64,000 nucleotides of DNA, from contig JALOTL010000008.1 of NCBI GenBank assembly GCA_025457915.1, positions 1-64,000 on the forward strand, read 5' to 3'. Source of the stretch: Spirochaetota bacterium. Lineage in GTDB: Bacteria; Spirochaetota; UBA4802; UBA5550. Positions within the stretch are counted from its first letter, which is position 1. Each line of letters starts with the position of its first letter. Positions 9,864-33,340 of this stretch are shown piece by piece. The notes beneath the pieces were generated by a model that made no database searches, was not told the origin of the DNA, and worked only from the letters and a program-made list of their open reading frames with translations. A program made the translations under genes and the position numbers.

Positions 9864-10088
9864 AAGATTTAATTTGGATAAAGAGATCGGCGCTGTACCG
9901 GGTTATGTCAATATATTTTTTTGGACATGCAGTCCCGCGGGATAAAAAGCTTGCATTTACCGATGAAATGGAATAATCTATTGAAATCCGGAACAGGCAT
10001 AAAACATGACAGACGGCACAGTGAAACATTCGGCGGCCGTATCTTTCCTCAAACCTCTTTCCGGTTTAATTACAGGGGATGTCATAAC

Positions 10089-11732
10089 ATGAAATCCGCC
10101 ATAGCCCTCATAAACCCCTACCCCAGAATCGACGCGGTGTTCTCGCCGCTCGCGGAAGAACTCAATCTCACGGTAAAAAAATATTCCGGCATCAGACCCA
10201 TGGCCGACGACCTGAACTCGAAGGTCCTGCCCGTGAAGGAGCTTGCACTCGTCATGGTGACCGGCACCTCGGAGGAAAATGATCCGGGCCAGTACCGCAA
10301 AAACATGTCACTGCTCGCACAGCTCGCGAAGCATTCGAAGCTTAAAGACATGCCGGTGCTCTTCCTGGGATATAAAGGCTGTGCCGAGCTCAGCAGTTCC
10401 TGTGCTGAACGCGGCGCGGAATACCTTGACCTGCCGGTGAAAAAAAGCGTGCTCGTGGAAAAAATAAGGAATCTCATCGATGGAACCGGGCGCGGATATA
10501 AAAATAAGCGCGGATTCGAATCCACGCCCATTACAACAGAAAGGAAAGCCGCGGCCGAATCCGAGCGCCGCCTCGCCACTGTGATGTTCGCGGATATTTC
10601 CGGCTTCACCGCCATGAGCGAGAAGATGGACCCGGAAGACGTGACCCGGGTGATGAACGGCGTCTTCCACCGAATGGAGACGGTCATCAAGGAGCATGGC
10701 GGGCACATCGACAAGTTCATAGGCGATTGCGTGATGGTGCTCTTCGGCGTGCCGAAAGCCATCGAGAACGCGCCGCTCCAGGCGGTGAACACCGCCATTG
10801 AGATGCGCAACGCACTGTATAGTTTTAACAGGGATAACAATCTCGCCATTCCACTGGACATCCACATCGGGATGAACACCGGACCGGTCGTCTCCGGGCA
10901 TGTCGGGGGGTCCGATAAAAAAGATTACACGGTCATGGGCGACGCGGTAAACCTTGCCTCGCGCATCGAGGGAGCCTCAGTGAAGGGGCAGATACTGGTG
11001 GGCCCGGACACGTACAGGGCCACGCAGGGCGAATTCGAATACAAGGCCCTGGCCCCGGTGACCCTCAAGGGCAAGGCAGACCCGGTGCCGGTGTACGAAG
11101 TGCTTTCCGTGAAGGAAGCGGCAGCCCGGCGTAGAAAGCCCGCGGAGCGCACAGACGTGGGACCGGAGAGGATGATCTATTCTGAGATGGTTGGCCGCGA
11201 CGAAGAACTGAACGAACTCCGCCACGCGGTGACAGGCCTCATCAAGGGAAAAGGCGGCATTGTGAACGTCATCGGCGAGGCGGGCATCGGCAAGTCGCGC
11301 CTGATGTCGGAACTCAAGGCCGACCCTGCCATGAAACAGGTGGCGATCCTGGAGGGCCAGGCCATCTCCATGGGCCGGAACCTGTCGTTTCACCCGATCA
11401 TCGATTTATTAAAACACTGGGCCGGGATACTGGAAGACGATTCCGAGCAGGATGCCTTTGCCAAGCTAGAAAAGGCCGTTCGTGCCGTGCACCCGGCAGA
11501 GGCCGACGAGATCATCCCCTTCGTGGGCACCCTGATGGGCATGAAGCTTTCCGGGAAATACGCCGAGCGCGTGAAGGGGATAGAGGGCGAAGCCCTGGAG
11601 AAGCTGATATTCAAGAACATCCGCGAGCTTCTTATAAAAGGATCAGAGATCAGGCCGATGATTATCCGCATCGAGGACCTCCACTGGGCGGACTCTTCAG
11701 GCTTGCGGAGAAATACCGCATACTCTTCCTGA
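10089..11732 (+). CDS. Cyclase-STAND-TPR protein, copy 1, N-terminal fragment (frameshifted)
   Basis: About 547 aa before an early stop. Residues 1-140 form a receiver-like domain. Residues 160-345 form a class III nucleotidyl cyclase domain with FADISGFT and GDCVMVLFG (metal Asp residues) and KDYTVMGDAVNLASR. Next is an AAA/STAND ATPase with Walker A GEAGIGKSR and Walker B-like IRIEDLHWAD. The frame then breaks: relative to the paralogue at 15571, 28 nt are missing at about 11692-11698, between two CTCTTC repeats. The remainder continues in another frame (next entry). The start at 10089 matches the paralogue start. The full protein would be a regulator coupling ligand sensing to cAMP/cGMP synthesis. 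Confidence 0.8.
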   Translation: MKSAIALINPYPRIDAVFSPLAEELNLTVKKYSGIRPMADDLNSKVLPVKELALVMVTGTSEENDPGQYRKNMSLLAQLAKHSKLKDMPVLFLGYKGCAELSSSCAERGAEYLDLPVKKSVLVEKIRNLIDGTGRGYKNKRGFESTPITTERKAAAESERRLATVMFADISGFTAMSEKMDPEDVTRVMNGVFHRMETVIKEHGGHIDKFIGDCVMVLFGVPKAIENAPLQAVNTAIEMRNALYSFNRDNNLAIPLDIHIGMNTGPVVSGHVGGSDKKDYTVMGDAVNLASRIEGASVKGQILVGPDTYRATQGEFEYKALAPVTLKGKADPVPVYEVLSVKEAAARRRKPAERTDVGPERMIYSEMVGRDEELNELRHAVTGLIKGKGGIVNVIGEAGIGKSRLMSELKADPAMKQVAILEGQAISMGRNLSFHPIIDLLKHWAGILEDDSEQDAFAKLEKAVRAVHPAEADEIIPFVGTLMGMKLSGKYAERVKGIEGEALEKLIFKNIRELLIKGSEIRPMIIRIEDLHWADSSGLRRNTAYSS

Positions 11733-14423: not shown

Positions 14424-15566
14424 ATGGAAATCAAACGATTAGTCGATCTGCAGGAATTGAAACGCCATATCGGCGTCTTCCCGGTAACCGCGATACTCGG
14501 CGCGCGGCAGTGCGGGAAAACGACCCTCGCACGTCAGATCAAATATAATCACTACTTCGACCTCGAAAACCCGAGAGACCTGGCAAAGTTTGAAAATCCG
14601 CAGCTTCTCCTCGAGGGGCTCTCGGGCACGATAATCATCGACGAGATCCAGCGAAGCCCCGACCTGTTTCCCCTGATCAGGTATCTGGTCGATACGGTGA
14701 AGAAGCAGAAATACGTGATTTTAGGCAGCGCCTCCCGGGACCTGATACAGCATGGATCGGAGACGCTGGCGGGACGTATCGGTTTTCTCGAGCTCTCCGG
14801 TTTCGGTATTCACGACATCGGCGCGATGAATTTCAAAACGCTCTGGACTAGGGGCGGACTGCCCCGTTCGTATCTCGCCGGGTCGGACGAAGAAAGCATG
14901 CTCTGGCGGGAGAACTATATCACGACATTCCTCGAACGGGACATTCCACAGCTGGGGATCACCATTCCCGCTCATACGCTCAGGCGCTTCTGGACCATGC
15001 TCGGCACCTACCACGGACAGCTGGTCAATTACTCCGAGATCGGGAGGGCGTTCGGGATATCCGACATGACGGTGAGAAATTATATCGGCATACTTGCCGG
15101 GACCTTCATGGTGAGGGTGCTGTCACCCTGGTACAGCAATATCGGGAAGCGGCTGGTGAAATCGCCGAAGGTGTACATACGCGACACGGGGCTCCTGCAC
15201 GCGTTGCTCTCCATACAGGACATGGACCAGCTCCTGTCTCACGGGAGACTGGGCGCTTCCTGGGAAGGATTTGCCCTGGAGACGGTCTGCAGGAGCATCG
15301 GGAAGCGCAACGAAGAGGTCTATTTCTTCAAGACCCACGCGGGGTCGGAGCTCGACCTTTTCTGGCAGGAAGGCGGGAAAAACTGGGGCGTCGAGTTCAA
15401 GTATGCCGATGCGCCCGGGATGACCAGGTCAATGAAATCCGTCATGGACGACCTGGCGCTCGAAAGGCTCTGGGTCGTCTACCCGGGGAAAGACCGGTAT
15501 GCACTCGAAGAAAGGATAACCGTCATTCCCCCTGCCGATATCGGTGAACGCTGGAATTACAGGTGA
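14424..15566 (+). CDS. AAA+ ATPase with DUF4143 domain
   Basis: A 380-aa protein of the common bacterial and archaeal AAA_14/DUF4143 family. Walker A is GARQCGKTTLARQI (about 27-40); Walker B is IIIDEIQRSPDLF (about 72-84); a short sensor region LGSAS follows; residues 200-375 form the DUF4143 domain with VYIRDTGLLHALL, GASWEGFALE and a PD-(D/E)xK-nuclease-like tail (GSELDLFWQ, GVEFKYAD). The biological role of the family is unknown. It lies between two copies of the cyclase-STAND gene, ends 4 nt before copy 2, and its last codons overlap that gene's ribosome site. Confidence 0.88.
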   Translation: MEIKRLVDLQELKRHIGVFPVTAILGARQCGKTTLARQIKYNHYFDLENPRDLAKFENPQLLLEGLSGTIIIDEIQRSPDLFPLIRYLVDTVKKQKYVILGSASRDLIQHGSETLAGRIGFLELSGFGIHDIGAMNFKTLWTRGGLPRSYLAGSDEESMLWRENYITTFLERDIPQLGITIPAHTLRRFWTMLGTYHGQLVNYSEIGRAFGISDMTVRNYIGILAGTFMVRVLSPWYSNIGKRLVKSPKVYIRDTGLLHALLSIQDMDQLLSHGRLGASWEGFALETVCRSIGKRNEEVYFFKTHAGSELDLFWQEGGKNWGVEFKYADAPGMTRSMKSVMDDLALERLWVVYPGKDRYALEERITVIPPADIGERWNYR

Positions 15567-15570
15567 GATA

Positions 15571-18500
15571 ATGAAATCCACCATCGCCCTCATAAACCCC
15601 TACCCCAGAATCGACGCGGTGTTCGCGCCGCTCGCGGAAGAACTCAATCTCACGGTAAAAAAATATTCCGGCATAAAACCAATGGCGGACGACCTGAACT
15701 CGAAGGTCCTGCCCGTGAAGGAGCTTGCACTGGTCATGGTGACCGGCACCTCGGAGGAAAAAGATCCGGGCCAGTACCGCAAAAACATGTCCCTGCTCGC
15801 ACAGCTCGCGAAACACTCGAAGCTTAAAGATATGCCGGTGCTCTTCCTGGGATACCGGGGATGCGCGGAGCTCGGCAGTTCCTGCATTGAAAGCGGCGCG
15901 GAATACCTTGACCTGCCCGTCAAAAAAAGCGTGCTCATGGAAAAAATAAGGAATCTCATCGATGGAACCGGACGCGGATATAAGAATAAGCGCGGATTCG
16001 AATCCGCGCCTATCGGCCGGAAAGCCCCTGCTCCGAAGGCGGCCGAGTCCGAGCGCCGCCTGGCCACGGTGATGTTCGCGGACATCTCCGGCTTCACCGC
16101 CATGAGCGAGAAGATAGACCCGGAGGACGTGACCCGGGTCATGAACGGCTGCTTCAAGATGATGGAGAAAATAATCAGCGAGCACGGCGGCCATATAGAC
16201 AAGTTCATCGGCGACTGCGTGATGGTGCTCTTCGGCGTGCCGAAGGCCATAGAAAACGCTCCGCTCCAGGCCGTCAACACTGCGATCGAGATGAGAAACG
16301 GGTTGTACGAGTATAATAAAACACTATCCGCGGTAAATGCAGATCACGACCTGCCCCTGCTGGACATCCATATCGGCTTGAACACCGGCCCGGTGCTGGC
16401 AGGCCAGGTGGGCGGAAAAAACAGGAAGGACTATACCGTAATGGGCGACGCCGTGAACCTTGCCTCGCGGATCGAAGGCGCGTCCGAAAAGGGACAGATA
16501 CTGGTGGGCCCGGATACGTTCAGGGCCACGCAGGGCGAATTCGAATACAAGGCCCTGGCCCCGGTTTCCCTCAAGGGCAAGGCGGACCCGGTGCCGGTGT
16601 ACGAGGTGCTTTCCGTGAAGGAAACAGCTTCGCGCAGGAGAAGGACCGGGAAGCGCGCTGCCCCGGGTACCGGCCCGGAGAGGATGATCTACTCCGAGAT
16701 GGTGGGCCGCGACGCGGAAATGAACCAACTCCGTCATATCGTGACCGGGCTCGTAATGGGCACCGGCGGCATCGTGAACGTTATCGGCGAGGCAGGAATC
16801 GGCAAGTCGCGCCTGATGGCCGAACTGAAGGCCGACCCGGCGATGAAGCAGGCAGCTATACTCGAGGGACAGGCCATCTCCATGGGCCGGAACCTGCCCT
16901 TCCATCCCATCATCGACCTTATGAAAAACTGGGCGGAAATCCGCGAGGACGACAGCGAGCAGATGTCATTCGCGAAACTCGACCGCGCGGTACGCGGCGT
17001 GCATCCGGAGGAGGCCGACGAGATCATTCCGTTCGTCGCCACACTAATTGGAATGAAGCTTTCCGGCAAATATGCGGAGCGCGTGAAGGGGATCGAGGGC
17101 GAGGCGCTGGAGAAACTCATATTCAAGAACATCCGCGAGCTTCTTATAAAAGGATCAGAGCTCCGTCCCATGATTATCCGCATCGAGGACCTGCACTGGG
17201 CTGACACTTCTTCCATCGAGCTCCTCTCATCGCTCTTCCGGCTGGCCCGAACGCACCGCATACTTTTCCTGAACTTCTTCCGTCCCAACTACGTGGAGAC
17301 GGGAGACCGGGTGCTGAAAACACTGAAAGAAGAATTTACCGATAAGTATACGGAAATCCCGCTCCAGCCCCTCAACACGTCGGAATCGGGCATGCTCATT
17401 TCAAATCTGCTGGACATAAAGGGCCTCCCGCAATCGCTTAAAGACCAGATCACGGAAAGAGCGGGCGGCAATCCATTCTTCATCGAGGAAGTTGTGCGGT
17501 CCCTCATCGACGAGGGGGCGGTGGTGAAAAAGGGCGATTCTTTCACTGTGACAGCAAAGATCAACACCGTCACGGTCCCCCTCACCATCAACGAGGTGCT
17601 GATGAGCCGCATAGACCGGCTCGCCGATGAGACGAAGCTCTTAATAAAGACCGCCTCGGTAATAGGCCGGTACTTCTTTTACAAGATAATATCACAGGTG
17701 GCCCATAACATATCAGATATCGACAAACGTCTCGGATACCTCGAAGACATACAGCTCATCCGCGAACGGAAGCGCATGGATGAGATCGAGTACCTGTTCA
17801 AGCACGCGCTCGCTCAGGAAGCGGCCTATGAGTCCCTCCTGCTCCAGAAACGGAAGGAGCTTCACCTGCACGTGGCGCAGGCGATTGAAAATGTATTTGC
17901 AGGAAGATTGCATGAATTTTACGGCATGCTTGCATATCACTACAGCAAGGGCGACAACCTTGACAAGGCGGAAGAATTCATGCTGAAGGCCGGGGAGGAG
18001 GCGATGAAAAGTTCGGCCTCGAGCGAGGCGCTTAACTACTATAAAGACGCGCTGAAGCTCTACCGGCAAAAATCAGGAAAGTACGCAGACCCGGAAAAAG
18101 TAAAAAAAATCGAGATCAATATCGCCCTCTCCCTTTATTATAAGGGGGAGATGGCGGAAGCGGTTGATTATTTCGACCGGGTGCTTTCCTATTTTGGACT
18201 CACGCTCCCCAAAAATCCTCTACGGAGAATATATTATTTTATCTCAGCTTTTATCGACATGCTACTGGCCATATACTTTCCCTCCATGAAATTTAAAAAG
18301 GAACCGCCAAGACCTGATCTCAAACTCATTGAACTGCACCATTATAAGCTTCATGGTTGCGGATTTTTTAATACCAAGAAGATGTTCTTTGACTCTTTTA
18401 ATCCCAACACATGGGTAAGTAATTTTATTCCTGAAAAAATTCAAAACAGCCTGGGATTTTTTTCTCAGATCAGCATGCTTTTTTCGTATACAGGGCTTTC

Positions 18501-19494
18501 GGAACGTATAAGTAGAAAAGTATTATCGATCGCCAGAACTTTGATAGAAAAAAGCGGCCCGGAAGAACGCTTGAGCTATATTCATACTAAACAAATGCAT
18601 AATCAATACTTCGGCTATTGGGACGAAATCACGCTTGATCAGGATTTAGTAGAAGAAAATATTAAAATCGGGAGTCTTTCATTTTCTTCACTTAAAATAC
18701 TCTGGAATTTTATATTGTTAACGAACCAGGGCAATCGATTACAATCGGAACGATGCATAGAAAGAATACGTAAAATCGCCGAGGAATTTAATCATGAAAT
18801 GTCGAGAATACTTGAACTGTATATGACCGGATATTTGTTTTGGAAATATCGGGATTCTCATGATCTTCTTGATCCGGTAAATAAGGGATTGCCCCTTTCG
18901 GAAAAATCGAACGCGCACATGGTTACAATAATGTTATATAATCTTATGGCCCAACATTCAGTTTTTTCCGGTGAATTTGACAAGGCAGCAAAATCCATAC
19001 AGGCAATAGAGATGATCAGGGCCCACACATCTTTTGTCCCACTGATTAACGGTTTTTATCTGATGGCCAAACTGGCAATTGCCATGGTCCAGGCAGAGGA
19101 ATCTTTCGCCGCGGGGAAGATGGACCGATCGCTATTGAAGCGAGCACTCAATTCAGCGCGTGCCTGCGTGAAAAATTCAAATAAAAACGCGTTGGACCGC
19201 GTAGAGGCATATCGTTTTATGGGTACCTGCTTCTGGTATGCCGGAAAACCAAAAAAGGCCCTCCGCTGGTGGAAGAAGTCCATCGACGAAGGCGAGCGCC
19301 TCGGCGCGCGGCTGGAGCTTTCGCGCACGTACTTTGAGGTTGGTAAAAGAATATTCCCGTTTAAAAAAGGACACAAACTCATGGAAACCGTGTTCAGGGG
19401 GATCACCGCCACCGAGTACCTGGAAAAGGCGCGCGTGATGTTTTCTAAGATGGGCCTGGAGCACGACCTTGCCGAGCTCGAAAAAATAATATAA
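15571..19494 (+). CDS. Nucleotidyl cyclase-STAND ATPase-TPR protein, copy 2 (intact)
   Basis: About 1307 aa, cytoplasmic. Residues 1-140: receiver-like domain with LPVKKSVL. 160-350: class III adenylate/guanylate cyclase; FADISGFT and GDCVMVLFG give the metal-binding Asp residues and KDYTVMGDAVNLASRIE the substrate side. 375-800: AAA/STAND ATPase with GEAGIGKSR (Walker A), RIEDLHWAD (Walker B) and GGNPFFIEEVVR. 820-1300: TPR-like sensor, AT-rich and diverged from copy 1 in its middle (from about nt 18070 to 19240), with conserved ends. The N-terminal 146 residues differ from copy 1 at only about nine positions. The start at 15571 has AGGTGA 5 nt upstream. Probably senses a ligand through the tail and makes a cyclic nucleotide; the ligand is unknown. 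Confidence 0.88.
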   Translation: MKSTIALINPYPRIDAVFAPLAEELNLTVKKYSGIKPMADDLNSKVLPVKELALVMVTGTSEEKDPGQYRKNMSLLAQLAKHSKLKDMPVLFLGYRGCAELGSSCIESGAEYLDLPVKKSVLMEKIRNLIDGTGRGYKNKRGFESAPIGRKAPAPKAAESERRLATVMFADISGFTAMSEKIDPEDVTRVMNGCFKMMEKIISEHGGHIDKFIGDCVMVLFGVPKAIENAPLQAVNTAIEMRNGLYEYNKTLSAVNADHDLPLLDIHIGLNTGPVLAGQVGGKNRKDYTVMGDAVNLASRIEGASEKGQILVGPDTFRATQGEFEYKALAPVSLKGKADPVPVYEVLSVKETASRRRRTGKRAAPGTGPERMIYSEMVGRDAEMNQLRHIVTGLVMGTGGIVNVIGEAGIGKSRLMAELKADPAMKQAAILEGQAISMGRNLPFHPIIDLMKNWAEIREDDSEQMSFAKLDRAVRGVHPEEADEIIPFVATLIGMKLSGKYAERVKGIEGEALEKLIFKNIRELLIKGSELRPMIIRIEDLHWADTSSIELLSSLFRLARTHRILFLNFFRPNYVETGDRVLKTLKEEFTDKYTEIPLQPLNTSESGMLISNLLDIKGLPQSLKDQITERAGGNPFFIEEVVRSLIDEGAVVKKGDSFTVTAKINTVTVPLTINEVLMSRIDRLADETKLLIKTASVIGRYFFYKIISQVAHNISDIDKRLGYLEDIQLIRERKRMDEIEYLFKHALAQEAAYESLLLQKRKELHLHVAQAIENVFAGRLHEFYGMLAYHYSKGDNLDKAEEFMLKAGEEAMKSSASSEALNYYKDALKLYRQKSGKYADPEKVKKIEINIALSLYYKGEMAEAVDYFDRVLSYFGLTLPKNPLRRIYYFISAFIDMLLAIYFPSMKFKKEPPRPDLKLIELHHYKLHGCGFFNTKKMFFDSFNPNTWVSNFIPEKIQNSLGFFSQISMLFSYTGLSERISRKVLSIARTLIEKSGPEERLSYIHTKQMHNQYFGYWDEITLDQDLVEENIKIGSLSFSSLKILWNFILLTNQGNRLQSERCIERIRKIAEEFNHEMSRILELYMTGYLFWKYRDSHDLLDPVNKGLPLSEKSNAHMVTIMLYNLMAQHSVFSGEFDKAAKSIQAIEMIRAHTSFVPLINGFYLMAKLAIAMVQAEESFAAGKMDRSLLKRALNSARACVKNSNKNALDRVEAYRFMGTCFWYAGKPKKALRWWKKSIDEGERLGARLELSRTYFEVGKRIFPFKKGHKLMETVFRGITATEYLEKARVMFSKMGLEHDLAELEKII

Positions 19495-24766: not shown

Positions 24767-26059
24767 TCAATAAACGTATGGTATTATCCTCCAGCGGACC
24801 CGTCTCGCGTATTCGTCCCAGTCGGCCCCGTACTTGATCGAACAGTTTTTATTGTCCCTCCTCTCCCTGTGCACCAGCAGGGCCGTGAAATAAACCGCGT
24901 AAAAATACGGCAGGGGGGACCCGAAAAGACACGGGAGGCACCAGGCGACAGCCATCATGATGTCGCCGACGTAATTGAAATGCCTCGAAAGGCCCCAGAA
25001 CCCCGAGACAAGGAGAAGGTTTCCGCGCGCCGTTCTGATGTACTCCGGGTCCCTCCCCCATATTTTCCCCGAGGGGTCGGTCCTGAAATTGTGCTTCTGA
25101 AGATTAACCGCCCGGAAAATGTAATACCCGGCCGCGTTCAGCAGCGTTATCAGCGCGATCCCCCATGCGGGAAGGTCGTGGCCGTGCCCGATGAGATAGA
25201 ACGACTGCAGGGTATACGTGAACGGGACCCAGACCAGGTCGCCGAAGGCCAGCATGTAGCCGAACCTCTCGTGCGCGATGTCGGTAGTGGTCAGAATCGC
25301 CGGCTCGTTCCAGAAATAATCCGCGACATAGAGGAACTGGAAAGCGTTCACCAGGACCATGGGCGCGGTCACATGCCCGAGCCTTGCGTACTGGACATAC
25401 ATGAAGCAGAGGTTGATCGCCAGCCAGCCCATGAGCCCCGGACGCGCCTCGCAGAAAATCTTCAGGTCGAAGCCGGTGACCGGGGGAACCCTGGGATTGA
25501 GCGCTGCGCCCATGAAGAAATCGTAAACCGGGCTGCCGGAACGCTCCTCCTGCGGCGCCGTTTTCTTCCCGTACCGGTAAAGGAAAACGCTCAGCAGGAT
25601 CACGAAAATGAAAGCGGAGGACGCAAGCGCGCCGAAATTATCGTAAACGAAAGAGGGATCGATCAGACCGGAACAATACAGCGCGCCCAGCAAAGCGAAC
25701 ACCAGCGTAAACGACAGCAGGCCGTTCATCCTGTATTCGAGCCTCATCCCGCCGGCAAGCGCCGTACCCTCCTGCTTCTTTCCCGGCAGGACTGCCTGAA
25801 GGAACGCCTGGAGCGCCATCCATCCGAGGAATACCGCCGCAGCTGCAGGATTGGGCGTTATGCTGTCGAGGAAACCCGTAAACGGCCTGAAATCGCTGAA
25901 ATTACCCGGCACGATTGACCCGCCGTTGAAACGCACGCAGTAATAAAGATAATATACCGCGGCCGGGAGCCCGGCCATCATGAGCGCGACGCCCGCCGGT
26001 CCGCCGAACTCGTATTTCTTCCATTTTCTTTTCGAAGGCTGTTCCATAAATCCTCTCAT
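24767..26059 (-). CDS. Sterol C14-reductase-like protein (ERG24/ERG4 family)
   Basis: A 430-aa integral membrane protein with about nine or ten hydrophobic helices. The C-terminal third carries the ERG4/ERG24/lamin-B-receptor signature: LLVSGFWGLSRHFNYVGDI, then PYFYAVYFTALLVHRERRD, then KYGADWDEYARRV ending in IIPYVY at the C-terminus. These are the NADPH- and sterol-pocket motifs of delta14/delta24(28) sterol reductases. The family is essentially eukaryotic, with scattered bacterial members. It lies downstream of an ERG2-like isomerase gene in the same direction; a MITE-like element separates them. Two in-frame ATGs (26059 and 26047) are possible; GGAGGAG precedes the first closely. Sterol substrate is inferred from family. 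Confidence 0.88.
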   Translation of the reverse strand: MRGFMEQPSKRKWKKYEFGGPAGVALMMAGLPAAVYYLYYCVRFNGGSIVPGNFSDFRPFTGFLDSITPNPAAAAVFLGWMALQAFLQAVLPGKKQEGTALAGGMRLEYRMNGLLSFTLVFALLGALYCSGLIDPSFVYDNFGALASSAFIFVILLSVFLYRYGKKTAPQEERSGSPVYDFFMGAALNPRVPPVTGFDLKIFCEARPGLMGWLAINLCFMYVQYARLGHVTAPMVLVNAFQFLYVADYFWNEPAILTTTDIAHERFGYMLAFGDLVWVPFTYTLQSFYLIGHGHDLPAWGIALITLLNAAGYYIFRAVNLQKHNFRTDPSGKIWGRDPEYIRTARGNLLLVSGFWGLSRHFNYVGDIMMAVAWCLPCLFGSPLPYFYAVYFTALLVHRERRDNKNCSIKYGADWDEYARRVRWRIIPYVY

Positions 26060-26088
26060 CTCCTCCGTTTCGCTGGAATCTTCTTAAT

Positions 26089-26189
26089 TATGGGCACATC
26101 TATAAATTAAAAACCGCTGGAAAAATATAATTTATGCATTGTAAGCACCATCAAGGGACATCCTGATTTGATTATCAGAGGTCCCCTTA
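26089..26189. mobile_element. MITE-like element B with TA-bounded terminal inverted repeats
   Basis: About 100 nt. Left end TATGGGCACATCTATAAAT; right end, reverse complement, TAAGGGGACCTCTGATAAT. The ends match in 13 of the first 19 positions. It also contains an AAGGGAC...GTCCCCTT foldback near the right end, and its right boundary coincides with the stop codon of the ERG2-like gene. Same family as the elements at 20902 and 59437. Confidence 0.6.
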
Positions 26190-26867
26190 AGACAGGAAGA
26201 ACCCCCTGATAGTTGGATAAAAAACATACAGGCACGCTAGCAACGCGGCGAGCAGTATGAATTTTATCACGAGATCGATGTCCTTTCCCTTGGTCAGCAG
26301 GCCCCTTATTGTAAGCTTCGCGTACTGCTTCATTATCCTGAATATGGTCCTGATGTCGAGCGTCGAAAAAATGGAATCGCAGAGACCGAACGGCAGCATC
26401 CTTATTATGCTCCCCCTCGCGTATTCCAGCATCCAGGCTTCATTCTTCACGCAATAGTGCTTGACCATCTTGTTGCCGAGATAGGCCGGCTTTCCCGACG
26501 GCACATGGACCTCGGCCTTGAAACGGCCCTCGTACTCGCACCTCATCTCTCCCTTCAGGAGAAAATCGTACACCTCGGACGAGTACCTGCCGGAATGCCC
26601 CTCCGTGCCTATGCAGGTGCCGAAAAAAATGACGTATTCCCTGAGAGAGGCGTGGATCAGCGACAGCTGACCCATGGCGCCGCCCGCGTTGTTGAAAATC
26701 CAATTCTGCTTTTTGCAGACATGGCCTGGATACTCCCTGTCGAGACCGTTTATGATGATATCGAAGCCCTTCTCTATCGGCTTCCCCAGGGCCTTTTTTC
26801 TTATTTTGTCCAGGACACGCGGGTCGAACAGGCATTTTTTCTTTGGTAAAAGATAGTCATTATCCAT
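26187..26867 (-). CDS. Sterol C8-C7 isomerase-like protein (ERG2/sigma-1 receptor family)
   Basis: 226 aa from the ATG at 26867, which has AGGAG 8 nt upstream; earlier in-frame ATGs lack a ribosome site. The ERG2/SIGMAR1 core is plain: VCKKQNWIFNNAGGAMGQL, SLREYVIFFGTCIGTEGHSGR, then EYARGSIIRMLPFG and DSIFSTLDIRTIF. The Glu in GTEGHSGRY and the acidic residues of the cupin-like barrel correspond to the ligand-binding acids in the family. Fungal ERG2 and the human receptor have an N-terminal membrane anchor; here the only clear membrane helix is at the C-terminus (FILLAALLACLYVFY). With the ERG24-like gene downstream it suggests modification of a sterol B/C/D ring. Confidence 0.88.
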   Translation of the reverse strand: MDNDYLLPKKKCLFDPRVLDKIRKKALGKPIEKGFDIIINGLDREYPGHVCKKQNWIFNNAGGAMGQLSLIHASLREYVIFFGTCIGTEGHSGRYSSEVYDFLLKGEMRCEYEGRFKAEVHVPSGKPAYLGNKMVKHYCVKNEAWMLEYARGSIIRMLPFGLCDSIFSTLDIRTIFRIMKQYAKLTIRGLLTKGKDIDLVIKFILLAALLACLYVFYPTIRGFFLS

Positions 26868-27050
26868 CAGCATCACTCCTGGTATCGGGATTCTCATCCT
26901 GCCTGAAACAATGACAGAACGATCAATCATCATAACACCCATATCCGCGGCAGTCAAGCCATAGAATCGGACCGGAATAAAATAATGACGGATTTAACAT
27001 GTTCAAGCAGCAATCAGATTACCGGCCTTACAGTTATCCATAAAAATCTA

Positions 27051-27588: not shown

Positions 27589-28578
27589 ATGACAGAAATC
27601 TGGAGGCCCGGCGTTTTCCAGGGCAGGGTCGGAAAAAAAAAATATTTCGAAGGCTGGTATTTCAAGTGCGTTTCAGGAGACGAAAAAGCGGCCTTCGCCT
27701 TAATCCCAGGGGTTTCGATCGGACGGGATGAGAAAAAATCGCACGCTTTCGTAATGGTCATGGACGCCCGAAGGCAAAAGCTCTATTACTTCAAATATCC
27801 CATCGATGAGTTCCGGGCGGACAAGAAAAAATTTGAAATCAGGATCGGTAAAAGCGTCTTCAGCCAGGAAATGGTCCGTCTCGACCTGCGGGACGGCGAA
27901 AACACGATAGAGTCCCTCATGGAATTTAAAAATATCACTTCCTGGCCGGTCACGCTGTTTTCCCCGGGAGCGATGGGCTGGTACGCGTTCGTGCCGTTCA
28001 TGGAATGCTACCACGGAATTTTAAGCTTCGACCATAAAATAGACGGACATGTAACCATAAACGGCGCGCGGCAGGATTTCACCGGGGGAAAGGGATACAT
28101 GGAGAAGGACTGGGGAACGTCCATGCCTTCGTCATGGATATGGATGCAGACCAACCATTTCGACGAGGACGGAGTGTCCCTGTTCGGTTCAATCGCCAAA
28201 ATCCCATGGCTCGGGAATTATTTCACTGGGTACCTCTTCGGCCTGCTCTATAAAAAAAACCTCGTAATGCTGACGACGTACGGCGGCGCGAAAATAGACA
28301 GACTCACCGTTTCCGACGAAAGGATAGAAATATCGGTCTGCGATAAAAAACACCTCCTTGAAATAACCGCCGACAGGGCCGAGGGCGTCGACCTCCCGGC
28401 CCCGTCCATGGGGGAAATGACGTCCAGGGTAAACGAATCCCTCCGGTCAAGGATAATCATCGCGCTGTACGAGAAAAAAAATGGGGGGAATGAACGCGTA
28501 TTCTCCGGGACCGGAAGGAATGCCGGTCTCGAGTTTGTCGGGGACATCAAAGAGCTGCTCGGGGGATTTAAAAAATAA
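27589..28578 (+). CDS. Tocopherol cyclase family protein
   Basis: A 329-aa protein without signal peptide or membrane helix. It matches the bacterial branch of the tocopherol-cyclase family: KYFEGWYFKCVSGDEKAAF near the N-terminus (about 18-36), GWYAFVPFMECYHGILS (about 131-147) and GGKGYMEKDWGTSMPSSWIW (about 165-184). In plants and cyanobacteria the enzyme closes the chromanol ring of tocopherol; most bacterial members sit in genomes without the rest of that pathway and their substrate is unknown. It is separated by 3 nt from a FadL-type porin gene. A role on a prenylated or hydrophobic substrate is inferred. Confidence 0.85.
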   Translation: MTEIWRPGVFQGRVGKKKYFEGWYFKCVSGDEKAAFALIPGVSIGRDEKKSHAFVMVMDARRQKLYYFKYPIDEFRADKKKFEIRIGKSVFSQEMVRLDLRDGENTIESLMEFKNITSWPVTLFSPGAMGWYAFVPFMECYHGILSFDHKIDGHVTINGARQDFTGGKGYMEKDWGTSMPSSWIWMQTNHFDEDGVSLFGSIAKIPWLGNYFTGYLFGLLYKKNLVMLTTYGGAKIDRLTVSDERIEISVCDKKHLLEITADRAEGVDLPAPSMGEMTSRVNESLRSRIIIALYEKKNGGNERVFSGTGRNAGLEFVGDIKELLGGFKK

Positions 28579-32422: not shown

Positions 32423-33340
32423 ATGTTTATGAAACCGAAAATTATCCTTCTTTCCGTCCTGTCCGCGATTTTCTTTGCCTCTCTACCTCAAATCCATGTA
32501 CAGGCCGCGGACTTAAGCCTCGGTGCCGTGTCCTGGTACGCGTGGTGGGTAACGCCTTTTAATAAAGAAATAAAGGGCGGCGCCCAGAACGCCTCAAAAG
32601 GCATCGATGTTAATATGAATAATTCCAATGTGCTGTACGGCCCAGTCATGTCGATTAAATTCAACGACATGTGGAATGTATCAGCGTTGTTTGTTTTCTC
32701 TCCTCATGGAGGATACGGAGCAAGAAGTGATTTCCTTGCCGCAAATGTAAACGACTTTTCAGAATTCGATGTATATCTCAACTCGAAGTTTGGAACAAGC
32801 TACATGCCTGTTCTCGTGGAAGCGGTGCGCGTTAATGTCCACTATATTAAAAGATATGATCTGGATCTTACCGCGGATTGCTGGCTCAACAAGTCCTTCA
32901 AAATCTTTTTCGGATTCAAGTACCAGGGATATAAAATGCTTGGAGATATGGCCGTCGTCTTTCTCAATCCCCAGCCTATACCCGGGTTATCCAAAACAAT
33001 GTACTCCAAGTATCACCTGTTCGGAGGCGGCCTCGGGATCGGTACTACCATACATTTAGTCGACAGCCTGTTTCTTGTAGGCAACCTGTCGGGCTTTCTT
33101 CTTGAGGGACTCACGTTTTTCAAACATGAATCATTCAGGGAACAGAGAAACGGCACGAGCACCTACGGGACGAATGGAAACCTTTCATTCGCCTATTACA
33201 TCGAGGACGCGAGGACCACGCTGTCCCTGGGCTACAGGGCGCAGGTAAACTGGTACGGCAAACCCGATCTTTCACATGACAGTGTGACCAACACCGGATT
33301 GTTCCACGGGCTGATGCTTTCAGTGATTTACACGATATGA
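32423..33340 (+). CDS. Hypothetical outer-membrane beta-barrel protein
   Basis: A 305-aa exported protein. The signal peptide (PKIILLSVLSAIFFASLPQIHVQA) is cleaved after AQA-like residues near 28. The mature protein has many aromatic and Gly residues in alternating strands (LFGGGLGIGTTIHL, TTLSLGYRAQVNWYG) and ends in LSVIYTI, typical of a barrel. No named family. Start at 32423, or at the ATG two codons later; a CCGGAG sequence lies just upstream. A terminator follows at 33393. Confidence 0.72.
   Translation: MFMKPKIILLSVLSAIFFASLPQIHVQAADLSLGAVSWYAWWVTPFNKEIKGGAQNASKGIDVNMNNSNVLYGPVMSIKFNDMWNVSALFVFSPHGGYGARSDFLAANVNDFSEFDVYLNSKFGTSYMPVLVEAVRVNVHYIKRYDLDLTADCWLNKSFKIFFGFKYQGYKMLGDMAVVFLNPQPIPGLSKTMYSKYHLFGGGLGIGTTIHLVDSLFLVGNLSGFLLEGLTFFKHESFREQRNGTSTYGTNGNLSFAYYIEDARTTLSLGYRAQVNWYGKPDLSHDSVTNTGLFHGLMLSVIYTI

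What the first reader, a model, noticed from the sequence alone, without database searches (positions are those of the whole stretch)
24767..26867. Adjacent ERG2-like and ERG24-like sterol genes in a spirochaete
The two proteins carry the full signatures of two consecutive eukaryotic sterol enzymes: C14-reductase (LLVSGFWGLSRHFNYVGDI, LLVHRERRD, KYGADWDEY) and C8-C7 isomerase/sigma-1 receptor (WIFNNAGGAMG, GTCIGTEGHSGR, EYARGSIIRMLPFG). They are neighbours on the same strand. Bacterial sterol genes are rare, and a linked pair acting on the B/C/D rings suggests that the cell finishes or edits sterols, either its own or taken from eukaryotes. The isomerase has its membrane anchor at the C-terminus instead of the N-terminus. 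I see no squalene monooxygenase or oxidosqualene cyclase in the window.
Basis: partly seen in the sequence, partly recalled or inferred. Interest (0 to 1): 0.9.

Follow-up and report, generated by a model that had tools for sequence, protein, structure and literature searches.

The report
Sterol-ring editing genes in anaerobic spirochaete
An uncultured, probably oxygen-independent spirochaete carries neighbouring genes for two late steps of sterol synthesis (a double-bond reductase and a double-bond isomerase), but none of the genes tested that are needed to make a sterol, so it most likely remodels sterols taken from other organisms.

Summary
Window 24767-26059(-) is a full-length ERG4/ERG24 reductase (Pfam 428 bits), closest to the solved bacterial C14 reductase MaSR1. 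Window 26187-26867(-) is an ERG2/sigma-1-receptor-type protein (198 bits). Acidic residues matching sigma-1 D126 and E172 are kept, and the membrane helix is C-terminal. The contig is bacterial, with flagellar genes and native codon usage.

(1) ERG2 followed directly by ERG24 recurs in 18 of 48 ERG2 loci found by a scan of prokaryote genomes, in four other groups, so the pair is a bacterial operon, not a chance neighbour. (2) The window's genome (96% complete) has no squalene synthase, squalene epoxidase, oxidosqualene cyclase, P450, sterol desaturase-type hydroxylase or haem-copper oxidase. It does have a second, distinct sterol reductase (best guess delta-7) and a sigma-2/TMEM97-like EXPERA protein. 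(3) In two relatives of the same family the same C14 reductase (65% identical) is followed by an EXPERA-fold protein instead of ERG2.

Best reading: an oxygen-independent set that edits ring double bonds of acquired sterols. Enzyme families are shown; activity, substrate and uptake are inferred. A new variant of a known kind.

The parts
24767..26059 (-). ERG24-type sterol C14 (delta-14) reductase, 430 aa; predicted catalytic Tyr244 and Asp366 (MaSR1 Tyr241/Asp363)
   Evidence: PF01222 428 bits; 4quv MaSR1 438 bits; catalytic residues mapped; clade with two same-family orthologues, support 100/99
26187..26867 (-). ERG2/sigma-1-receptor-type delta-8/delta-7 sterol isomerase, 226 aa from the ATG at 26867 (longer TTG reading starts at 26957)
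   Evidence: PF04622 198 bits; 38-39% identical to human and Xenopus sigma-1 receptor; equivalents of S1R D126 and E172 conserved; start choice from AGGAG and promoter-like site
26190..26275 (-). C-terminal transmembrane helix of the ERG2-like protein (about IDLVIKFILLAALLACLYVFYPTIRGFFLS)
   Evidence: hydropathy 2.48; also in the relative L034/L002; absent from most other bacterial ERG2s found
26060..26186 (-). 127-bp spacer between ERG2 and ERG24, with GGAGG just upstream of the ERG24 ATG
   Evidence: read directly; spacers in the 18 other adjacent pairs are at most 45 bp
27589..28578 (+). Tocopherol-cyclase/lipocalin-like protein, divergent neighbour; possible lipid handling (link to sterols inferred only)
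   Evidence: PF14249 84 bits
28582..29910 (+). FadL/TodX-type outer-membrane protein; candidate sterol uptake channel (inferred only)
   Evidence: PF03349 36 bits

Best explanation
The two genes encode a bacterial sterol C14 reductase (ERG24 type) and a delta-8/delta-7 sterol isomerase (ERG2 type). In eukaryotic sterol synthesis these reduce the C14 double bond of a delta-8,14 sterol with NADPH and later move the delta-8 double bond to delta-7. The spirochaete appears unable to make sterols, so the substrates would be sterols or sterol intermediates taken up from other organisms, possibly through outer-membrane lipid channels such as the neighbouring FadL-like protein. A third enzyme elsewhere in the genome (contig C18, probably a delta-7 type reductase) and a TMEM97-like EXPERA protein would extend this to a set of oxygen-independent edits of ring double bonds, matching a genome without a haem-copper oxidase. 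Shown: families, conserved catalytic residues, operon recurrence, absence of de novo genes. Inferred: catalytic activity, substrate identity, uptake route and physiological purpose (membrane sterol, or use of the double bonds as a reductant sink).
For: Full-length Pfam matches and nearest solved relatives. Predicted catalytic Tyr/Asp of MaSR1 kept as Tyr244/Asp366; S1R D126/E172 equivalents kept, the E172 equivalent in all 68 rows. ERG2-ERG24 adjacency, same order and strand, in 18 of 48 ERG2 loci from four other groups; MaSR1 itself is a near-identical sister of the Methylotuvimicrobium buryatense reductase that lies beside ERG2. No PF00494, PF08491, PF00067, PF04116 or PF00115 in the genome, and only a 373-aa non-cyclase hit to PF13243, although these searches ring in control genomes. 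Squalene epoxidase is also absent from relatives G002, G005 and G015. Orthologue of the reductase in G002 and G015 beside an EXPERA gene. Second full-length ERG4/ERG24 enzyme in the same genome (model pLDDT 91, TM 0.81-0.91 to 4quv). Codon usage and flagellar neighbours show native bacterial DNA.
Against: No biochemistry. Sigma-1 receptor shares the ERG2 fold and acid pair but is generally not considered an isomerase, so the fold alone does not prove isomerisation. Free delta-8,14 sterols, the normal ERG24 substrate, are scarce in nature (general knowledge). No sterol uptake gene is proven. The genome is 96% complete, so one missing gene could be a gap, though five families at once is unlikely. 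The pair is not kept together in the family: G005 has ERG2 without a full-length ERG24, and G002/G015 have ERG24 without ERG2.
Confidence: 0.64

Rival explanations
1. The organism makes sterols itself and the upstream genes are in the missing part of the assembly.
For: Assembly is 96.4% complete in 50 contigs. Many other genomes with ERG2 do have a squalene epoxidase family hit: 27 of 50 genomes searched.
Against: Squalene synthase, squalene epoxidase, cyclase, P450 and FA_hydroxylase families are all absent together; squalene epoxidase is also absent in G002 (99% complete), G015 (97%) and G005 (93%); and the genome has no haem-copper oxidase.
Confidence: 0.06
2. The proteins act as sensors of sterols or other hydrophobic ligands, or on a non-sterol isoprenoid, rather than as C14 reductase and C8-C7 isomerase.
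For: Sigma-1 receptor and TMEM97 are relatives of sterol isomerase folds without established isomerase activity; PMC13382799 does not support an isomerase role of TMEM97. The substrate source here is unknown.
Against: The reductase keeps the predicted catalytic Tyr and Asp and its best solved match is MaSR1 at 438 bits. The isomerase gene recurs directly upstream of ERG24 in unrelated bacteria, many of which have squalene epoxidase.
Confidence: 0.2
3. Eukaryotic or foreign-bacterial contamination of the assembly.
For: Both families are best known from eukaryotes.
Against: 143-kb contig with fliF/G/H/I and other bacterial genes, GC3 and codon scores within the window's range, intron-free ORFs, orthologues in other genomes of the same family, nearest tree neighbours prokaryotic.
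Confidence: 0.02
4. Decaying remnant of a fuller sterol pathway inherited from a sterol-making donor, with no present function.
For: Upstream pathway genes are missing and presence is patchy: ERG2 in 2 and full-length ERG24 in 3 of 98 related genomes.
Against: All ORFs are intact, catalytic residues are kept, the reductase is 64-65% identical to orthologues in another genus of the family, and a second sterol reductase is also intact.
Confidence: 0.08

Closest known systems
MaSR1 (PDB 4quv), C14 reductase of Methylotuvimicrobium alcaliphilum, and the ERG2-ERG24 gene pair seen here in Methylococcales
   Same: Same family along the full length, same predicted catalytic residues; in related methanotroph genomes ERG2 lies directly upstream of ERG24
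   Different: Methanotrophs of this group make sterols with oxygen (squalene epoxidase found); the spirochaete lacks all de novo genes tested
Clusters of steroid genes in sponge symbionts (PMC9531527), which include ERG24 and in several cases ERG2
   Same: ERG24 and ERG2 clustered in bacteria
   Different: Those clusters hold CYP51 and lanosterol synthase; here neither family is in the genome
Sterol delta-7 reductase of Legionella drancourtii, Protochlamydia and Coxiella (PMC2667531)
   Same: Sterol reductase in bacteria, there proposed to serve host-sterol parasitism; the spirochaete's C18 paralogue shares the DRAGFY motif encoded by that paper's primer
   Different: Those are amoeba-associated or intracellular bacteria; that paper reports no ERG2-ERG24 pair in the parts read
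Sigma-1 receptor / fungal ERG2 (PF04622)
   Same: 38-39% identical to sigma-1 receptor, same acid pair
   Different: C-terminal instead of N-terminal membrane helix
TMEM97 / sigma-2 receptor and EBP (EXPERA superfamily, PF05241)
   Same: The gene next to ERG24 in relatives G002 and G015, and a gene on C48 of the window's genome
   Different: Bacterial profile matches TMEM97 (65.6 bits) and not EBP in the PDB, so isomerase activity is unproven

Membership tests
ERG24-type sterol C14 reductase | Full-length PF01222 match above cut-off | tested here: met
   428 bits vs 27, positions 3-432/432
ERG24-type sterol C14 reductase | Predicted catalytic Tyr241 and Asp363 of MaSR1 (PMC12489058) | tested here: met
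   Tyr244 and Asp366 in the window protein
ERG24-type sterol C14 reductase | Groups with the characterised C14 reductase rather than with other reductase clades | tested here: met
   Same side as MaSR1 and the fungal C14 reductase, apart from the L021 clade; that fork has only moderate support, 93/74
ERG24-type sterol C14 reductase | NADPH-dependent delta-14 reduction | not testable with these tools
   needs enzyme assay
ERG2 sterol C8-C7 isomerase / sigma-1 receptor | PF04622 match above cut-off | tested here: met
   198 bits vs 21
ERG2 sterol C8-C7 isomerase / sigma-1 receptor | Acid pair equivalent to S1R D126 and E172 | tested here: met
   E172 equivalent in 68 of 68 rows, D126 equivalent in 65
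ERG2 sterol C8-C7 isomerase / sigma-1 receptor | N-terminal transmembrane helix (sigma-1 receptor topology) | tested here: not met
   Helix is at the C-terminus instead; this argues against calling it a sigma-1 receptor, not against the ERG2 fold
ERG2 sterol C8-C7 isomerase / sigma-1 receptor | Isomerase activity | not testable with these tools
   needs enzyme assay
De novo sterol biosynthesis | Squalene synthase, squalene epoxidase, oxidosqualene cyclase, CYP51 | tested here: not met
DHCR7 sterol delta-7 reductase (paralogue L021 on C18) | Groups with proven delta-7 reductases | tested here: inconclusive
   Separate clade with Minicystis and DRAGFY motif; no reference delta-7 reductase sequence was available
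EBP sterol isomerase (EXPERA proteins of relatives and C48) | EBP-type catalytic His76/Glu80/Glu122/Trp196 (PMC6549186) | tested here: inconclusive
   Profile matches TMEM97, not EBP; no EBP sequence could be aligned

The most novel reading that the evidence does not exclude
A group of uncultured, probably anaerobic spirochaetes runs an oxygen-independent pathway that reduces and shifts ring double bonds of scavenged sterols, with the slot next to the C14 reductase filled either by ERG2 or by a TMEM97-like EXPERA protein. If so, anoxic ring editing of sterols has a genetic basis, and sigma-1- and sigma-2-type proteins share a bacterial sterol context.
Probability: 0.25. Interest if true: 0.78.

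Novelty: new variant of a known kind. Interest (0 to 1): 0.58.

Why it matters
Known bacterial sterol gene sets mostly sit in aerobes that make sterols or, as single reductases, in intracellular bacteria. A reductase-isomerase pair plus a second reductase, in a genome without any tested de novo gene or haem-copper oxidase, points to sterol remodelling without oxygen. That bears on how sterols are altered in anoxic settings, where they are the precursors of fossil steranes, and on what sterols do in bacteria that cannot make them. The possible exchange of ERG2 for an EXPERA protein beside the same reductase offers a bacterial handle on the poorly understood sigma receptors.

Tried and rejected
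Eukaryotic contamination: rejected (codon usage, flagellar genes, orthologues in the family). Own sterol synthesis: rejected on five absent gene families; the one cyclase-family hit (L003) is a 373-aa protein scoring 30 bits against an OSC cut-off of 851. That the EXPERA neighbour in relatives is an EBP-type isomerase: not accepted, because its profile matches TMEM97. Confirming the C18 paralogue as DHCR7: a viral-contig scan found nothing, the single-sequence fold was poor, the alignment-based fold was good but the viral structure library held no relative. Origin of ERG2 (bacteria to eukaryote or the reverse): left open, since only two animal sigma-1 sequences were available and they sit on a long branch. 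Two relevant papers, PMC8237579 (Hoshino and Gaucher 2021) and 10.1128/JB.00818-10 (Gilk 2010), were not held.

Full report
Observation. The downstream gene (24767-26059, minus strand) matches PF01222 over its whole length with 428 bits, and the upstream gene matches PF04622 with 198 bits. The nearest solved proteins are MaSR1, the delta-14 reductase of Methylotuvimicrobium alcaliphilum (438 bits), and sigma-1 receptor (126 bits). The C-terminal membrane helix is supported by hydropathy.

Active sites. A modelling study of ERG24 names Tyr241 and Asp363 of MaSR1 as the predicted catalytic residues (PMC12489058). They correspond to Tyr244 and Asp366 here. In the ERG2 protein the positions of sigma-1 D126 and E172, which I know as the ligand-binding acid pair, are both kept, and the E172 equivalent is invariant in all 68 rows.

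Host. The window is the first 64 kb of a 143,776-bp contig in a 3.66-Mb, 96.4% complete genome. A genome of the same family, G005, has a 4,308-bp contig with an ERG2; the scan of named genomes returned a 4,308-bp contig of a 'Spirochaetes bacterium' carrying an ERG2 of the same length and score. The window carries fliF, fliG, fliH and fliI. GC3 and codon scores of both genes fall inside the range of their neighbours.

Distribution. Of 98 related genomes, 2 have ERG2 and 3 have a full-length ERG4/ERG24. A scan of 84,980 species genomes found 48 ERG2 loci in Methylococcales, Myxococcota, Rokubacteria, Planctomycetota, Cyanobacteria, Chloroflexi, Hydrogenedentes, Asgard archaea and others; the scan depends on two short peptide patterns and will miss some. 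In 18 of them ERG24 follows ERG2 directly on the same strand, with gaps of at most 45 bp or overlapping called ORFs. The pair is therefore a recurrent bacterial unit. ERG24 in bacterial steroid clusters, with ERG2 in several, is already reported for sponge symbionts (PMC9531527).

Trees. The window reductase forms a fully supported group with its two same-family orthologues (100/99), beside the C14 reductases. The window ERG2 groups with the other spirochaete sequence (100/97) and then with a Lokiarchaeota-labelled sequence (100/99).

What is missing. The genome has no squalene synthase, squalene epoxidase, P450 or FA_hydroxylase family member. Its only cyclase-family hit is a 373-aa protein far below OSC cut-offs. 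Each of these searches rings in control genomes. Squalene epoxidase is also absent in G002, G005 and G015. There is no haem-copper oxidase, which suggests, without proving, an anaerobe; cytochrome bd was not searched.

What else is there. A second full-length PF01222 enzyme lies on C18 (253 bits). It is 31% identical to the window's, 48-49% identical to a Minicystis rosea protein and forms a separate clade with it. A 25-sequence AlphaFold2 model has pLDDT 91 and matches 4quv with TM 0.81-0.91. It has Glu where C14 reductases have the predicted catalytic Asp, and it shares DRAGFY, the motif encoded by a primer for the Legionella drancourtii delta-7 reductase (PMC2667531). A delta-7 type is therefore likely but not shown. 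An EXPERA protein lies on C48, downstream of a short-chain dehydrogenase gene; the same SDR-EXPERA order is seen in G010 and G011.

The swap. In G002 and G015 the orthologous C14 reductase (64-65% identical) is followed on the same strand by an EXPERA protein (PF05241, 57-63 bits). EXPERA includes EBP, the human isomerase that rescues yeast lacking Erg2 (PMC6549186). But the bacterial profile matches TMEM97 (65.6 bits), not EBP. TMEM97 loss in a human cell line causes build-up of FF-MAS, the delta-8,14 sterol that C14 reductase acts on, though that study's data did not support an enzymatic role of TMEM97 and found no binding to the reductase TM7SF2 (PMC13382799). The pairing is therefore suggestive, not proof, of an exchanged isomerase. 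G002 and G015 belong to one genus, so this counts as one event.

Interpretation. The simplest account is a set of oxygen-independent enzymes acting on ring double bonds of acquired sterols. It explains the intact enzymes, the missing upstream pathway and the lack of a haem-copper oxidase. It does not explain which sterols are used or why. The neighbouring FadL-type and lipocalin-like genes could serve uptake, but no homologues lie within about 9 kb of the reductase in G002 or G015, so I give that little weight.

Noticed in passing
L035:8082-8765: An ERG2 on a contig labelled Lokiarchaeota (with genes that read like a HerA-type ATPase and ClpB) is the closest relative of the spirochaete ERG2s (56% identical, support 100/99); ERG2s also occur on Heimdallarchaeota and Prometheoarchaeum contigs. 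Misbinning was not excluded.
   Followed up: partly
window 32423-33340 and L021:443-1402: Related predicted outer-membrane proteins (25% identity, E 3e-15) lie near both sterol reductase loci of this genome; one weakly matches Legionella_OMP.
   Followed up: partly
L021:3470-4087: A lipocalin (PF08212, 126 bits) lies near the second sterol reductase on C18; the window locus has a tocopherol-cyclase/lipocalin-like protein near its reductase.
   Followed up: no
L032:490-1860, L031, L033: A short-chain dehydrogenase gene followed by a TMEM97-like EXPERA gene recurs in three genomes of the family, including the window's.
   Followed up: partly
L048, L055-L057: Cyanobacteria (Calothrix rhizosoleniae, Hormoscilla) hold ERG2 with an ERG4/ERG24-type gene a few kb upstream and a squalene epoxidase family hit in the genome.
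   Followed up: no
L044 (genome G108), L061 (G125), L064 (G128): Three other genomes have ERG2 and full-length ERG24 but no squalene epoxidase hit; they could be further sterol editors or incomplete assemblies.
   Followed up: no
window 9921-11732 and 15544-19494: Proteins of adenylate cyclase type joined to ATPase domains (PF00211 and AAA_16 confirmed for the first; the second is 1316 aa and looks similar by reading).
   Followed up: no
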